Assembly (NCBI GenBank): GCA_017507385.1
Contig: JAFWAX010000065.1
Coordinates: 1-64,000 of the forward strand
DNA from: Bacteroidaceae bacterium
Lineage (GTDB): Bacteria; Bacteroidota; Bacteroidia; Bacteroidales; Bacteroidaceae
Length of the DNA stretch: 64,000 nt
Direction of reading: 5' to 3'
In this document: positions 28,488 through 36,730 of the stretch, one piece after another
Numbering within the stretch: the stretch's first letter is position 1
Layout: every line of letters begins with the position of its first letter
Program-made: the position numbers and the translations under genes
The notes under the pieces: model-generated
What the model saw: only the letters and a program-made list of their open reading frames with translations
Databases searched by the model: none
What the model was told of the DNA's origin: nothing

Positions 28488-29864
28488 ATGGCACAGAAAC
28501 CAGGTATTCCAAAGGGTACACGCGACTTCTCGCCTGTTGAGATGGCGAAGCGCAACTACATATTCAACACCATCAAGGAGGTGTATGCCTTGTATGGCTT
28601 CCAGCAGATAGAAACGCCTGCAATGGAGAATCTCTCCACGCTGATGGGCAAGTATGGCGAAGAGGGCGACAAGCTTCTTTTCAAGATTCTTAATTCAGGA
28701 GATTTCATGCATGGCATGACGGCTGATGAAGTGGCAAGCACAAGCACGCTGAAGCTGGCAGCAAAATTCTGCGAGAAGGGACTTCGATATGACCTCACAG
28801 TGCCTTTCGCACGTTATGTTGTGCAGCACCGCGAGGAATTGGCTTTGCCGTTCAAGCGTTATCAGATTCAGCCCGTATGGCGTGCCGACCGTCCGCAGAA
28901 AGGGCGTTACCGTGAGTTCTATCAGTGCGATGCCGATGTGGTAGGCAGCGAATCGCTGCTGAATGAGGTTGAGCTGATGCAGATTGTGGATACAGTGTTT
29001 ACAAGATTCGGTGTGCGTGTATGTATCAAGATCAATAACCGAAAAATCCTTACAGGCATCGCCGAGATGATAGGTCAGGCCGATAAGATTGTTGACATCA
29101 CTGTCGCAATCGATAAGCTGGACAAGATTGGTCTTGATGCTGTGAATGCAGAGCTGGCAGAAGATGGGATTCCTGCTGAGGCTATCGAAAAGCTCCAGCC
29201 CATCATCAAGTTGAGCGGCTCTAATGCAGAGAAGCTGCAGACGATGAAGGAGGTGCTGCAAGATTCAGCAATCGGCATGAAGGGCATTGAGGAAACTGAA
29301 TATATTCTCTCCAAGTTGGGTGCGCTTGCAGCCGATGCTTCAACGCTGAACAATGCCATTGAGCTCGACCTGACGCTGGCACGCGGCTTGAACTATTACA
29401 CAGGTGCCATCTTTGAAGTGAAGGCTTTGGATGTTCAGATAGGCTCCATCACAGGAGGTGGACGTTACGACAACTTGACAGGCATTTTCGGTCTCCCCGG
29501 CTTGAGTGGTGTGGGCATTTCGTTCGGTGCCGACCGCATCTTCGATGTGCTCAATCAGTTAGACCTCTATCCCAAAGGAGCAGTCAGCGCCACACAACTG
29601 CTCTTCGTCAACTTTGGTGAGGCAGAAGCCGGCTATTGTCTGCCTCTGCTGGCAAAAGTGCGCGCAGCAGGCATTGCAGCCGAGATTTATCCGGATGCGG
29701 TGAAGATGAAGAAGCAGATGAACTACGCCAATGCCAAGCAGATACCTTTTGTTGCCATTGTAGGCGAAAGCGAGATGGCAGAAGGCAAGGTGAACATGAA
29801 GAATATGACTACCGGCGAACAGATGCTGGTCGATGCAGAAAAGATATTGGACGGCATCCGTTAG
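28488..29864 (+). CDS. hisS: Histidyl-tRNA synthetase
   Basis: Class II aminoacyl-tRNA synthetase, 458 residues. Motif 1 region [17 protein letters not shown], motif 2 [13 protein letters not shown], the histidine-specific [14 protein letters not shown], and motif 3 [13 protein letters not shown]...[11 protein letters not shown] are visible, followed by the anticodon-binding domain. It ends at a strong terminator. Confidence 0.98.
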
Positions 29865-29886: not shown

Positions 29887-29940
29887 AATCTCCTCAAAAG
29901 CTTGAAAGAAAAGCTTTTGGGGAGATTTATGTTTTTTAGC
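29887..29940 (+). terminator. Rho-independent terminator of hisS
   Basis: AATCTCCTCAAAAGCTT (29887-29903) pairs with AAGCTTTTGGGGAGATT (29911-29927), followed by a T-rich run. Confidence 0.9.
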
Positions 29941-30014
29941 GGCTCTCATTCTCCAATTTTCACCTTCGTGCTTATTTTTCTGACAATCATGCTATAGTTT
30001 CGAAAAACTTTCAT

Positions 30015-30022
30015 TATCTTTG
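30015..30022 (+). promoter_or_regulatory. Promoter -7 motif of the LRR leader
   Basis: TATCTTTG. A start near 30029 gives a leader of about 415 nt before the LRR start codon. Confidence 0.6.
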
Positions 30023-30028
30023 CCCTGA

Positions 30029-30375
30029 CTTTGCCAGCCTTCGGGAGGGCGGGTCATGACATCGATGGATAATGTTCCTTAGTCAGTGCAGGTCGAGAAC
30101 CTCTGAGACACAGGACATTAAAAGGACGTTTTCAAACGTTATCTTCAAGTCATCAAACTTCGCAAACTTGATTCTATCTGAAGATACCGCAATGAAGCGT
30201 CCATGCTGGGTGTATTATACCCGTATGTGTGAAAGCCGCAATTGTAGGTTTTCGACATACATTATATATAATACGCATTGGCGTGGGCTGGCTGAGTTGC
30301 TTATCTCGATAGAAAGGCAATGCGAAGGCCTGATGACTGGGATAAGCGAGGAAGTATTCTCCCACGTCTTTTTGT
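30029..30375 (+). ncRNA. Candidate multi-hairpin leader RNA with terminator-like end
   Basis: Visible helices, in order: TATCTTCA with TGAAGATA (about 30139-30185); GGGTGT with ATACCC (30207-30221); GTATGT (30222-30227) with ACATAC (30255-30260), enclosing GAAA with TTTC; and an outer CGTGGG (30282-30287) with CCCACG (30361-30366), enclosing GCTTATC (30299-30305) with GATAAGC (30341-30347). The last helix is followed by TCTTTTTG, like an intrinsic terminator. It lies between a promoter and the LRR gene. Reading frames crossing it lack coding character. No known RNA (tmRNA, RNase P, 6S, SRP) is recognised. Either a cis-regulatory attenuator or a small RNA. Confidence 0.5.
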
Positions 30376-30443
30376 ATCCGCATATTTAATTGTTAATCGC
30401 TGAAGTTGGGGAGAAGCGGAGGCAAAAAAAGAATCAAAAAACA

Positions 30444-32375
30444 ATGAAAAAACTAAGAACATTGACTGCACTCATAGCTGTGCTATGCAGTTGCGCTATT
30501 TCCGCCTATGACTTTGAGGTGAATGGAATTTATTACAACAAGCTTTCCTCAACGACTGTAGAGGTTACTTCTGGTACGGATAAATACAGCGGTGATGTGG
30601 CTATTCCTGAATCTGTGACTTGCATGGGAAGCACTTATAGCGTGGTAAGTATCGCAAATTATGCTTTCTATGATTGCAGGGAGTTGGAGAAAATTACCAT
30701 TTCAAACGGTGTCATGTGCATTGGAGACAATGCATTTCAAAATTGTTCCAAATTGATGGAAATTGTTATTCCAAAGAGCGTGGTGAGTGTCGGGTATAAT
30801 GCATTCTATTGCAGTGGTTTGGCTTCAATTGTTGTTTCAGAGAGTACGGCGAGCATAGGATACGAGGCGTTCCATGGAACCCCTTGGTGGGAACGTCAAG
30901 AAGAAGGAGTGATATACATCAATAACATATTGTATGCATATAAAGGCTGGATGGAAGAGGGGACAGCTGTGGTTGTCAAAGAAGGAACGAGAAGCATCGC
31001 AGATTATGCTTTCGAACGCTGCAGGAACTTGGAGAAAATCACCATTCCCAATAGCGTGACGAGCATCGGAGACGAGGCTTTCTCTTACTGCTCCGGCTTG
31101 AAAGAAATCATTATCCCGAACAGTATTATGAGCATTGGAACTAATGCGTTTGAAGGTACCTCTTGGTGGGAAAGCCAAAAAGGAGTGATTTACATTGGTC
31201 AAGTGTTGTATGGATGCAAGGGAGATTCGTATTCTTTGACATCAGTGGATATCAAAGACGGGACGAAAAGTATCGCAGATTATGCTTTCGAAGGTTGTTT
31301 CGGCTTGAAGGAAATCTCCATCCCGAACAGTGTTACAAGCATTGGAAGCGGTGCTTTCTGGTACTGTTCCGGCTTGAAGGAAATTACCATCCCGAATAGT
31401 GTTACAAGCATTGGAGATTACACTTTCTATGGTTGTTCTAGCTTGAAAGAAATCACCATCCCTAATAGTATTACGAGTATAGATAGTGTGTTTGTTGGGT
31501 GCGATGGCTTGGTTGAGATTACTATTCCCAATAGTGTTACGAGCATTGGAGACAAAGCATTCTATGGCTGCTCTGAATTGAAGGAGATTACCATTCCGAA
31601 CAGTGTTACGAGCATTGGAGACAAAGCATTCCAAGATTGCTCTGATTTACAAGATATCACTATTCCAAGCAGTGTGACTGTGATAGGGGACGAAGTGTTT
31701 CGGAATTGCTCTGCTTTGGAGGAAATCACCATTCCGAACGGTGTGATGAACATCGGAGAACTTGCTTTCGAAAGTTGTGATAATTTACAAAAAATCACCA
31801 TTCCGAACAGTGTTACGAGCATTGGTACAGAAGCTTTCAGAGATTGCTATAGCTTAAAGGATATCGTTATTCCTAACAGTGTGTCGAGCATTGGATCCCT
31901 TGCTTTTTGTAGGTGTATAGACTTGGTAAAAATTGTTATACCTGAAAGCGTGACAAACATTGAATACCAAACTTTCTATGGGTGTGATAGCTTAGCTGAA
32001 ATAACCATTCCTTCAAGTGTGACAGAAATCGGGGATGAAGCCTTTATGAACTGCTCTTATGTCAAGAAGATTGTGTGCAATGCCACCACGCCTCCGACTG
32101 CTTATTATGACACATTCACCGGCATCAACAAGGAAGAGTGCGTCCTGATGGTGCCGGAGGGAACAGAGGCTTTGTACAAGGAAGCGAAGAGATGGAAGGA
32201 CTTTCTTGTGATTGAGAGCATCCCATCAGCCATTGAGCAGGTAGCAGGCTCAACAGCGGTGGCGGGTGACATCTACGACCTGAGCGGAAGACTGGTGGGG
32301 GCTCAGGCTGAAGGCATGGATGGCTTGGCTCCGGGCGTCTATGTGAAGAACGGGAAAAAGTATATCGTGAAATAA
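30444..32375 (+). CDS. BspA-type leucine-rich-repeat surface protein
   Basis: 643 residues from ATG 30444, which opens a good signal peptide (MKKLRTLTALIAVLCSCAISA); the longer frame from 30390 is unlikely. About fifteen LRR_5-type units of 23 residues follow (pattern ITIPNSVTSIGDxAFxxCSxLKE), with two degenerate interruptions containing TPWWERQ and TSWWESQ. Then comes a spacer domain (KKIVCNATTPPT...VPEGTEALYKEA) and a tail IYDLSGR...PGVYVKNGKKYIVK resembling a type IX secretion signal. BspA-like proteins bind host or bacterial surfaces; the ligand here is unknown. A long structured leader precedes it. A truncated relative lies at 145-504. Confidence 0.88.
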   Translation: MKKLRTLTALIAVLCSCAISAYDFEVNGIYYNKLSSTTVEVTSGTDKYSGDVAIPESVTCMGSTYSVVSIANYAFYDCRELEKITISNGVMCIGDNAFQNCSKLMEIVIPKSVVSVGYNAFYCSGLASIVVSESTASIGYEAFHGTPWWERQEEGVIYINNILYAYKGWMEEGTAVVVKEGTRSIADYAFERCRNLEKITIPNSVTSIGDEAFSYCSGLKEIIIPNSIMSIGTNAFEGTSWWESQKGVIYIGQVLYGCKGDSYSLTSVDIKDGTKSIADYAFEGCFGLKEISIPNSVTSIGSGAFWYCSGLKEITIPNSVTSIGDYTFYGCSSLKEITIPNSITSIDSVFVGCDGLVEITIPNSVTSIGDKAFYGCSELKEITIPNSVTSIGDKAFQDCSDLQDITIPSSVTVIGDEVFRNCSALEEITIPNGVMNIGELAFESCDNLQKITIPNSVTSIGTEAFRDCYSLKDIVIPNSVSSIGSLAFCRCIDLVKIVIPESVTNIEYQTFYGCDSLAEITIPSSVTEIGDEAFMNCSYVKKIVCNATTPPTAYYDTFTGINKEECVLMVPEGTEALYKEAKRWKDFLVIESIPSAIEQVAGSTAVAGDIYDLSGRLVGAQAEGMDGLAPGVYVKNGKKYIVK

Positions 32376-32391: not shown

Positions 32392-32467
32392 CACCGCCTT
32401 CATCATATTTAAAACACCGTGCGCGAAATATTTCGTAGGCGGTGTTTTAAATATTATGCGCACGGTG
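32392..32467. repeat. Palindromic element, copy 1 (rearranged)
   Basis: Blocks run A (CACCGCCT, 32392-32399), B (32405-32414), C (CACCGTGCGC, 32415-32424), a GAAATATTTC centre, A' (AGGCGGTG, 32437-32444), B' and C' (GCGCACGGTG, 32458-32467). The central arms ATATTTAAAACACCG and CGGTGTTTTAAATAT pair perfectly (32405-32419 with 32440-32454). It follows the LRR stop by 16 bp and is related to the element at 62853-62924. Confidence 0.85.
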
Positions 32468-32554
32468 GACACGTGGGAAACAGCGAGTTTTATGTGAATT
32501 TGCCGAACTCGCGTTGAAATAAAATTCCTAATTGTGATGAGAGGGGACGGATAC

Positions 32555-36465: not shown

Positions 36466-36494
36466 TTTGGGTAAATCGGGAATATATAACTTTG
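36466..36494 (+). promoter_or_regulatory. Promoter of the cobalamin uptake operon
   Basis: TTTG (36466-36469), 17-bp spacer, TAACTTTG (36487-36494), directly before the riboswitch. Confidence 0.75.
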
Positions 36495-36499
36495 TCTCT

Positions 36500-36690
36500 G
36501 TTATGGTTCGTCACCCCGACGATGAAAAGGGAACGAGGTGCAAATCCCCGACAGTCCCGCTGCGGTAAGTCCATGACATCGAAGCTGCATTGTTGCCACT
36601 GAGCATCAGCCGATTTCTCCATGAGAATTCAATAGCGTGCTTGGGAAGGTTTTGTAGCGGAGAGGACAAGTCCGAAGACCTGCCATGACA
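36500..36690 (+). promoter_or_regulatory. Cobalamin (B12) riboswitch
   Basis: Contains, in order, GAAAAGGGAACGAGGTGCAA, CCCCGACAGTCCCGCTGCGG, GCCACTGAGCA, TTGGGAAGG and a B12-box-like AGTCCGAAGACCTGCC (36670-36685). These match the conserved core of adenosylcobalamin riboswitches, with the box slightly diverged from the usual GCCAGGAGACCTGCC. Its position between a promoter and btuB implies repression of B12 uptake by the vitamin. Confidence 0.92.
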
Positions 36691-36730
36691 TCATCAACTA
36701 ATGCTCTCGAGGAAAGAGTCTCTTGATAAA

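What the first reader, a model, noticed from the sequence alone, without database searches (positions are those of the whole stretch)
30015..30443. Long multi-hairpin leader ending in a terminator upstream of an LRR surface protein
At least five helices with complementary arms fill about 350 nt after a promoter. The last, CGTGGG/CCCACG enclosing GCTTATC/GATAAGC, is followed by TCTTTTTG and no second promoter precedes the gene. This is the layout of an attenuator or riboswitch controlling a surface adhesin, or of an abundant small RNA. I have an unverified impression that similar leaders recur in Prevotella.
Basis: partly seen in the sequence, partly recalled or inferred. Interest (0 to 1): 0.72.

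Follow-up and report, generated by a model that had tools for sequence, protein, structure and literature searches.

The report
Bacteroidales leader RNA with docked loops
The stretch is one copy of a large, intricately folded RNA that gut bacteria of the order Bacteroidales carry, often several times per genome, at the start of messages for surface and other accessory proteins; it looks like an on/off leader switch, but what it senses is unknown.

Summary
Window 30015-30443 is one of 10 copies in its genome of a structured RNA family. A model of its 3' domain matches 167 of 251 genomes of its family and 39 of 295 of its order (own genome included in both), but only the own genome in a phylum sample, 1 of 296. 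No Rfam 15 family matches it. A Bacteroidetes-type promoter motif precedes 113 of 123 copies. A reading frame starts within 130 nt behind 116 of 143, mostly at 45-95 nt. Compensatory changes in 130 copies establish three helices between the loops of a 5' and a 3' hairpin domain (X, K, Y; 0 of 200 tree-based nulls as good). A segment after the U-run pairs with the terminator strand. Genes behind it are diverse: BspA-type LRR, lipoproteins, Cxxx-repeat peptides, LytTR, TM2, AbiH. Best reading: a cis-acting leader that attenuates transcription, perhaps by strand exchange. Complementarity for that switch is conserved (96% paired), but its covariation does not exceed the null. Transcription, termination and signal are untested.

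The parts
30015..30022 (+). -7 promoter element TATCTTTG (Bacteroidetes TAnnTTTG)
   Evidence: Sequence. TAnnTTTG within 200 nt upstream of 113 of 123 copies, against 11% of base-shuffled upstream regions (in 2 of the 113 the motif lies under 10 nt from the core and may be chance). Consensus TAnnTTTG for sigma-ABfr in PMC7366714 (passages).
30027..30055 (+). P0, 5'-terminal hairpin GACTTTGCC...GGGCGGGTC at the presumed RNA start
   Evidence: Complementarity across 106 copies, z 4.2 over permuted partners but not above nearest-relative swaps (55 better, 50 worse, p 0.18): suggestive only.
30124..30202 (+). 5' domain: stem P1 GGACGTTT 30124-30131 / AAGCGTCC 30195-30202, enclosing stem A TATC 30140-30143 / GATA 30183-30186 and hairpin hp1 30153-30157 / 30167-30171
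   Evidence: Null alignments as good (pairing of changed cells; paired double changes, of 200): P1 9 and 0, hp1 2 and 0, A 59 and 5. Coordinates.
30148..30338 (+). Inter-domain helix X: AGTCATCA 30148-30155 with TGATGACT 30331-30338
   Evidence: 91% paired over 5 pairs; 0 and 0 of 200 nulls; 3 of 6 tested pairs significant at E<=0.05.
30158..30327 (+). Inter-domain loop-loop (kissing) helix K: CTTCGCA 30158-30164 with TGCGAAG 30321-30327
   Evidence: 99.8% paired in 130 copies; 0 and 0 of 200 nulls; 2 of 7 pairs E<=0.05.
30172..30314 (+). Inter-domain helix Y: TTCTATC 30172-30178 with GATAGAA 30308-30314
   Evidence: 86% paired; 0 and 0 of 200 nulls; 1 of 6 pairs E<=0.05.
30208..30275 (+). P3, central hairpin with conserved base GTGTATTATA / TATAATAC and a variable tip
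   Evidence: 79-86% paired at the base; covariation not above null (51 and 44 of 200); tip varies in length.
30280..30368 (+). T, terminator-like stem GGCGTGGG 30280-30287 / CCCACGTC 30361-30368, enclosing stem B TTGCTTATCTC 30297-30307 / GGGATAAGCGA 30339-30349 and hp2 30315-30318 / 30328-30331
   Evidence: T and B each 99% paired. Nulls as good (changed cells; double changes, of 200): T 0 and 25, B 0 and 8.
30369..30373 (+). U-run directly after stem T
   Evidence: 101 of 125 copies have at least 5 T in the first 6 bases after the stem; 24 do not.
30357..30415 (+). Post-terminator helix D: TTCTCCC 30357-30363 with GGGAGAA 30409-30415
   Evidence: Own leader complements own strand better than permuted leaders (z 14, n=125) and better than the 5 nearest relatives' leaders (76 better, 42 worse, 7 equal, p 4e-4); not above null in fixed columns (33 and 33 of 200).
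30199..30288 (+). Alternative (antiterminator-like) pairing AT: GTCCATG 30199-30205 with CGTGGGC 30282-30288, exclusive with P1 and T
   Evidence: 79-100% paired per position in 130 copies, 31-48% when slid, but covariation not above null (33 and 28 of 200): inconclusive.
30120..30373 (+). Alternative end-to-end pairing R: AAAAGGACGT 30120-30129 with ACGTCTTTTT 30364-30373, exclusive with P1 and T
   Evidence: 93% paired, weak covariation (20 and 5 of 200); one slid version is also 81% paired.
30444..32375 (+). Downstream gene, BspA-type leucine-rich repeat protein, 643 aa, signal-peptide-like N-terminus by eye
   Evidence: ORF (start ATG 30444) and Pfam LRR_5.

Best explanation
A cis-acting 5' leader RNA, probably a transcription attenuator, of a family that no Rfam 15 model matches. 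Transcription starts just after 30022 (inferred from the promoter motif). The RNA folds into a 5' hairpin domain (P1/A) and a 3' hairpin domain (T/B). Their large loops dock through helices X, K and Y (shown by covariation). The 3' domain is closed by stem T, directly followed by a U-run, so its completion should stop RNA polymerase before the gene (inferred). The strands of P1 and T can exchange partners (AT plus R) into a single long rod in which T cannot form. This would be the read-through state (complementarity shown, switching inferred). Once read through, the gene-side segment GGGAGAA pairs with the terminator strand (helix D, shown by own-versus-swapped complementarity) and would hold the mRNA leader in that state (inferred). 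X and Y differ between copies, so that a leader docks with itself rather than with most other copies in the cell. The signal that tips the balance is unknown. Because diverse accessory genes share the leader, I think a general cell-state signal or a protein more likely than a pathway metabolite.
For: An ATG reading frame starts within 130 nt of the end of the profile match on the element's strand in 116 of 143 copies (median 68), and at 45-95 nt in 105 of 143. The same rule gives 40 of 321 at 45-95 nt at random places on that strand and 9 of 120 on the other side of the element. A promoter motif precedes 113 of 123. X, K and Y have 0 of 200 null alignments as good on both measures, and 6 of their pairs pass a phylogenetic null at E<=0.05. 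T is 99% paired, with a U-run in 101 of 125. D exceeds permuted leaders (z 14) and near-relative swaps (p 4e-4). AT is on average 96% paired versus 31-48% when slid. Nested folding of whole cores is on average 13 kcal/mol more stable than the separate domains, and only 3 with a foreign 5' domain. Among the 10 copies of the own genome, own loops pair at mean -34.3 kcal/mol versus -16.5 across copies (the near-identical pair C61a/C72 left out of the latter), own being the best partner in 9 of 10.
Against: No transcript data. The T stem encloses 73 nt, unlike a compact terminator, and the terminator scan finds none. 24 of 125 copies have fewer than 5 T in the first 6 bases. Covariation for AT, A5'B3' and A3'B5' is not clearly above null (33 and 28, 57 and 137, 49 and 7 of 200), so the switch is not shown. 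D lies behind the U-run and cannot itself prevent termination. Nested-fold energies ignore the pseudoknots of the local state. X, K and Y could be intermolecular. Cross-copy loop pairing reaches -28.1 kcal/mol at best, so docking is not perfectly exclusive.
Confidence: 0.52

Rival explanations
1. A leader that acts on translation or mRNA stability rather than on termination: the folded 5' RNA plus helix D shields or exposes the start region, and the U-run is only the gap strand of the structure.
For: D, made after the U-run, is under pairing constraint. 24 of 125 copies have a degraded U-run yet belong to the family. T has a very large loop (73 nt). The A-tract/U-run complementarity R is 93% paired.
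Against: A U-run of at least 5 in 6 directly after a stem paired in 99% is kept in 101 of 125 copies, which a pure translation leader would not need.
Confidence: 0.2
2. A stand-alone structured RNA of about 350 nt that works in trans or as a homodimer (X, K and Y between two molecules, as in ornate large RNAs), ended by T; the downstream gene is only partly read through.
For: Own promoter motif and terminator-like end. The loop-loop pattern is consistent with self-recognition: own loops are the best partner in 9 of 10 copies. GOLLD, ROOL and OLE form homo-oligomers stabilised by kissing loops among other contacts (PMC12286853, abstract).
Against: Up to 15 model matches per genome, a gene start at a narrow distance, and sequence beyond the terminator that complements each copy's own strand point to action in cis.
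Confidence: 0.15
3. A metabolite-binding riboswitch for one ligand.
For: Size, conserved loop sequences and terminator stem are riboswitch-like.
Against: Among 105 scanned downstream proteins 15 have LRR_5 and 10 match the Cxxx-repeat peptides; apart from LRR-related and surface-repeat models the other families listed have 1-3 members (25 of 44 Pfam and 25 of 36 NCBIfam families were shown). No Rfam riboswitch matches the element.
Confidence: 0.08
4. A mobile DNA repeat (MITE-like) or promoter cassette whose palindromes serve transposition, not RNA function.
For: Several copies per genome in front of unrelated accessory genes.
Against: Compensatory changes are specific to each copy. Strand relative to the gene and distance to the start codon are constrained. 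One element searched by blastn had no match in plasmids or phages, and one pattern none in viral contigs.
Confidence: 0.05

Closest known systems
Transcription attenuators / terminator-type leader RNAs (class)
   Same: Promoter-proximal structured leader, stem followed by U-run, then a gene; an alternative pairing of the terminator strand is possible.
   Different: The terminator stem encloses a 73-nt domain that docks with an upstream domain by three helices; a helix beyond the U-run is conserved; no leader-peptide frame in the core (14 of 106 cores have any open frame); no single gene class behind it.
Ornate large RNAs GOLLD, ROOL, OLE (PMC12286853, abstract and outline seen)
   Same: Structured RNA with kissing loops and long-range covariation.
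   Different: No Rfam match; about 350 nt; up to 15 matches per genome in front of genes; in these samples found only within its order.
HMP2_1881 of Fremin and Bhatt 2021 (PMC8040213, passages seen)
   Same: A 108-bp candidate, mostly Bacteroidetes, near radical SAM genes, expressed at all 13 places where it was found; 10 of 105 of our downstream proteins match a radical SAM target family.
   Different: Identity could not be tested (no sequence or structure held here); at 108 bp it would be at most a fragment.
Flavo-1 and Bacteroidales-1 motifs (names and their presence in Rfam recalled; Flavo-1 is mentioned in PMC9723704 section 19)
   Same: Bacteroidetes RNA motifs.
   Different: No Rfam model matched the element in the window or in the 20 loci scanned.

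Membership tests
Any Rfam 15 family | Match at or above the gathering score | tested here: not met
   Window and 20 of the loci with relatives: the only hits are a cobalamin and a TPP riboswitch elsewhere. Three hits at E<=10 in 29900-30500 are far below their thresholds.
Transcription attenuator | Terminator stem plus U-run before the gene | tested here: met
   T 99% paired; U-run in 101 of 125; but the loop is atypically large and a compact-terminator scan finds none in the window region.
Transcription attenuator | Mutually exclusive antiterminator pairing | tested here: inconclusive
   AT mean 96% paired, slid versions 31-48%; covariation not above null (33 and 28 of 200).
Transcription attenuator | Regulated read-through | not testable with these tools
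   No RNA data held.
Leader-peptide attenuator | Conserved short reading frame in the leader | tested here: not met
   About 3 stops per frame per core; 14 of 106 cores have any open frame. The parts before and after the core were only looked over, not tested.
Metabolite riboswitch | Downstream genes of one pathway | tested here: not met
   105 of 115 downstream proteins scanned; no dominating pathway in the families shown.
Metabolite riboswitch | Ligand binding | not testable with these tools
   Needs in-line probing.
GOLLD / ROOL / OLE | Sequence-structure homology | tested here: not met
   No Rfam hit at the element; that these families are in the library is recalled.
Mobile repeat (MITE) | Terminal inverted repeats with target-site duplication, empty sites | not tested
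   Only the absence of hits in plasmids, phages and viral contigs was tested, with one element or pattern each.

The most novel reading that the evidence does not exclude
A new class of regulatory RNA: a bistable, self-addressed leader in which two hairpin domains dock loop to loop and exchange strands in the manner of a four-way junction. Exchange makes or breaks a terminator, and the read-through state is locked by a segment beyond the terminator. Bacteroidales would use it, up to 15 times per genome, as a common gate for accessory surface, peptide and defence genes under one cell-wide signal.
Probability: 0.3. Interest if true: 0.92.

Novelty: new variant of a known kind. Interest (0 to 1): 0.78.

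Why it matters
A structured RNA this large, this frequent (two thirds of the sampled genomes of its family) and this well supported by compensatory change, yet without a match in Rfam 15, would mean that a whole set of co-controlled genes of gut and rumen Bacteroidales is unannotated. It would link adhesin-like LRR proteins, modified Cys-rich peptides and other accessory genes to one control element. It is directly testable in named isolates that carry it (Bacteroides, Phocaeicola, Paraprevotella, Xylanibacter and Prevotella). If the strand exchange is real, it would add a regulatory RNA architecture based on loop docking between two hairpin domains.

Tried and rejected
Rfam with permissive E-values on 29900-30500 gave only chance-level hits. 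A consensus promoter/terminator scan found nothing. My first alignment mixed strands and was discarded (replaced). An antiterminator helix tested one position out of register looked unsupported and was re-tested in register. Helix D in the fixed alignment is not above null (33 and 33 of 200), because the spacer length varies; the flexible test supports it. A further helix between the 5' linker and the bases after the U-run is not above near-relative swaps (z 2.7 against permutations only, n=121) and is not claimed. The A5'B3' arm of the rod has no covariation support. In the first two own-genome loop tests some copies were cut wrongly (C81 and C67, C81); the counts given are those. Helix coordinates printed are one too low; one search corrects them. 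Mobile-element association: no match to one 259-nt element by blastn in plasmids and phages, and no exact-pattern match in viral contigs; divergent copies could be missed. Literature: seven searches listed no paper whose title or listed abstract start describes this element. Passages of PMC7160235 and PMC9723704 did not either. Subscription papers and supplements were not searchable, so 'not in print' is not claimed.

Rows dropped: 5 duplicate places among the loci (L001, L031, L032, L033, L035; onwards). 5 identical cores. 13 of 143 copies (truncated or very similar) before the 130-copy alignment. 7 of 130 with too little upstream sequence. 5 of 130 without a recognised T strand (three of these five do carry a U-run). 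24 of 130. 10 of 115 downstream proteins not scanned. Of 103 non-redundant 3' domains L047, L132 and L150 were left out, so model R1 rests on 100, one of them (L088) badly aligned. The genome searches used stricter filters and model only the 3' domain; their counts are likely lower bounds and the full element was not checked there.

Full report
Observation. The 429-nt stretch folds at -144.2 kcal/mol (z -4.9, 0 of 100 shuffles as good) and the core 30118-30375 at -98.9 (z -7.5, 0 of 200). No Rfam 15 family matches the region or 20 loci with relatives (a TPP riboswitch elsewhere in L037 is the only hit).

A family, not a single leader. A DNA search of the window's genome finds four more copies, and a search of the 45 genomes of the genus finds matches in 25. 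A pattern scan of named genomes stopped at its limit with 118 loci. By their titles 112 bear the name of a taxon that I know to lie in Bacteroidales (among isolates: Bacteroides bouchesdurhonensis, Bacteroides sp. GM023, Phocaeicola massiliensis, Paraprevotella clara, Xylanibacter rarus, Prevotella sp. tc2-28). One is labelled Bacteroidetes, one 'bacterium', and four are metagenome bins labelled Clostridia, Clostridium or Lachnospiraceae, perhaps misbinned. A profile of the first 30 copies matches all 148 loci (30 plus 118); some are cut by locus ends. A covariance model of the 3' domain (100 sequences) finds 10 copies in the own genome. It matches 167 of 251 genomes of the family (up to 15 matches in one) and 39 of 295 genomes of the order, over 20 families by my count of the rows (own genome included in both). 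In a sample of the phylum only the own genome matches, 1 of 296. These searches used stricter filters and the full element was not checked in each. One element searched by blastn had no match in plasmids or phages, and the pattern none in viral contigs.

Anatomy common to the copies. 113 of 123 copies have TAnnTTTG within 200 nt upstream, against 11% of base-shuffled regions; this is the sigma-ABfr -7 consensus quoted in PMC7366714 (passages). Then come a 5' hairpin (suggestive only), in some lineages an extra hairpin (by eye), and the core. 101 of 125 copies have at least five T in the first six bases after the closing stem; 24 do not. In 116 of 143 copies an ATG reading frame starts within 130 nt of the end of the profile match, median 68. 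With the same rule 105 of 143 start at 45-95 nt, against 40 of 321 at random places on the same strand and 9 of 120 on the other side of the element. The core is not coding: about three stops per frame, 14 of 106 with any open frame.

Secondary and tertiary structure. A covariation analysis made without a structure model, on 130 non-redundant copies (effective number 102), puts long-range pairs on top. With a tree-based null, pairs in X, K, Y and hp1 reach E<=0.05; the only two other significant pairs are cross-pairs inside K. At helix level (200 null alignments; nulls as good on pairing of changed cells, then on paired double changes) the results are: X, K and Y 0 and 0; hp1 2 and 0; P1 9 and 0; T 0 and 25; B 0 and 8; A 59 and 5; P3 51 and 44. 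So two hairpin domains, P1/A and T/B, present loops that pair with each other over three helices; stem A is the least certain of them. In the window X is AGTCATCA/TGATGACT, K is CTTCGCA/TGCGAAG and Y is TTCTATC/GATAGAA. Among the 10 copies of the own genome each copy's loops pair best with its own partner in 9 of 10 (mean -34.3 versus -16.5 kcal/mol; best cross pairing -28.1). This fits docking in cis or between identical transcripts.

A segment beyond the terminator belongs to the RNA. Mostly 25-46 nt after the end of the profile match lies GGGAG-type sequence complementary to the strand just before and inside stem T (first 60 copies listed). Own leaders fit better than permuted ones (15.8 versus 13.1, z 14, n=125) and better than those of the five nearest relatives (76 better, 42 worse, 7 equal, p 4e-4). 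Fixed-column counting does not show it (33 and 33 of 200), because spacing varies. D overlaps the CCC of T, so T and D compete in part.

A possible switch. The P1 and T strands can re-pair as AT (GTCCACG:CGTGGGC, mean 96% paired; slid versions 31-48%) and R (93% paired, with one slid version at 81%), and the A and B stems can exchange in a similar way. Nested folding prefers the whole-core fold by 13 kcal/mol on average, against 3 with a foreign 5' domain. But covariation for AT is not above the null (33 and 28 of 200), R is weak (20 and 5), and one arm has none (A5'B3' 57 and 137). The strand exchange is therefore a hypothesis supported by conserved complementarity only, and the energies leave out the docked pseudoknot.

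Genes behind the element. Of 105 of 115 downstream proteins scanned, 15 have LRR_5 and 10 match the Cxxx-repeat radical SAM target family; other families listed, apart from LRR-related and surface-repeat models, have 1-3 members (Big_2, FHA, DUF2971, AbiH, GtrA, LytTR, SusC-like and others; 25 of 44 Pfam and 25 of 36 NCBIfam families shown). 73 of 112 look secreted by a simple hydropathy rule. Like for like, of those with at least 200 aa 78% of 63 do, against 38% of 435 mechanical background frames of that length. In a search of 121 genomes for the Cxxx-repeat family, 14 had a match (3 above the family's cut-off). In 8 of these 14 the element lies on the same strand within 1 kb upstream, in 5 of them within about 100 nt of a match (sequence held reaches 1.5 kb at most). 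In the own genome, 9 of the 10 copies precede a recognisable gene: three LRR genes, a lipoprotein-like protein with Ig-like repeats by eye, two other secreted or lipoprotein-like proteins, an 88-aa HTH-like protein (no Pfam match), a TM2-domain protein and a LytTR-like protein by eye. The tenth has no clear gene.

Reading. The evidence shows a conserved, pseudoknotted, cis-located RNA. I commit to transcription attenuation as the most likely action (0.52), because most copies keep a strong stem with U-run between promoter motif and gene. Translation or stability control, a trans-acting or dimeric RNA, a riboswitch and a mobile repeat are the rivals, in that order. What is inferred and not shown: transcription, termination, switching and the signal.

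Known work. GOLLD, ROOL and OLE are the closest in style (PMC12286853, abstract and outline) but are not relatives by Rfam. HMP2_1881 of PMC8040213 (passages), a 108-bp Bacteroidetes candidate near radical SAM genes expressed at all 13 places found, may be a fragment of this element; this could not be tested. Structured 5' regions without Rfam hits are reported in Flavobacterium psychrophilum (PMC9723704 section 19), but our model found nothing outside the own genome in the phylum sample. The Bacteroides thetaiotaomicron map reports 13.5% of mRNAs with 5' regions over 100 nt, about 2% of these with a predicted riboswitch (PMC7366714, passages).

Noticed in passing
36487-36701 (+): Cobalamin riboswitch (RF00174, 97.9 bits) directly before a 692-aa reading frame that looks like a TonB-dependent receptor by eye.
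   Followed up: no
29890-29937: Compact palindrome with T-run after the upstream gene (28488-29864, histidyl-tRNA-synthetase-like by eye), a plausible ordinary terminator that separates it from the leader; the consensus scan of 29900-30500 did not list it.
   Followed up: no
32405-32470 and L002:1220-1297: Palindromic repeat with GCACGGTG/CACCGTGC behind the LRR gene; a similar repeat stands upstream of another copy of the element in the same genome.
   Followed up: no
L183, L184, L185, L186, L187: A second, more divergent subtype of the element in the own genome, with A stem CTTTGTT/AACAAAG-like and B stem CTCGTT/GGGACGAG-like in part of them, weaker model scores.
   Followed up: partly
L016, L131, L080, L153, L064, L185: A recurrent small (70-90 aa) HTH-like protein, IGQxIKxELxRQxRTVSWLARKL..., follows the element in several genomes; no Pfam match for the one tested.
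   Followed up: partly
L014, L058, L104, L082, L122 and others: Precursors with SRREFFKKAAKGALPILG-type leaders and Cys-rich tails by eye; the Cxxx-repeat radical SAM target model matches 10 of 105 scanned proteins, without the listing saying which.
   Followed up: partly
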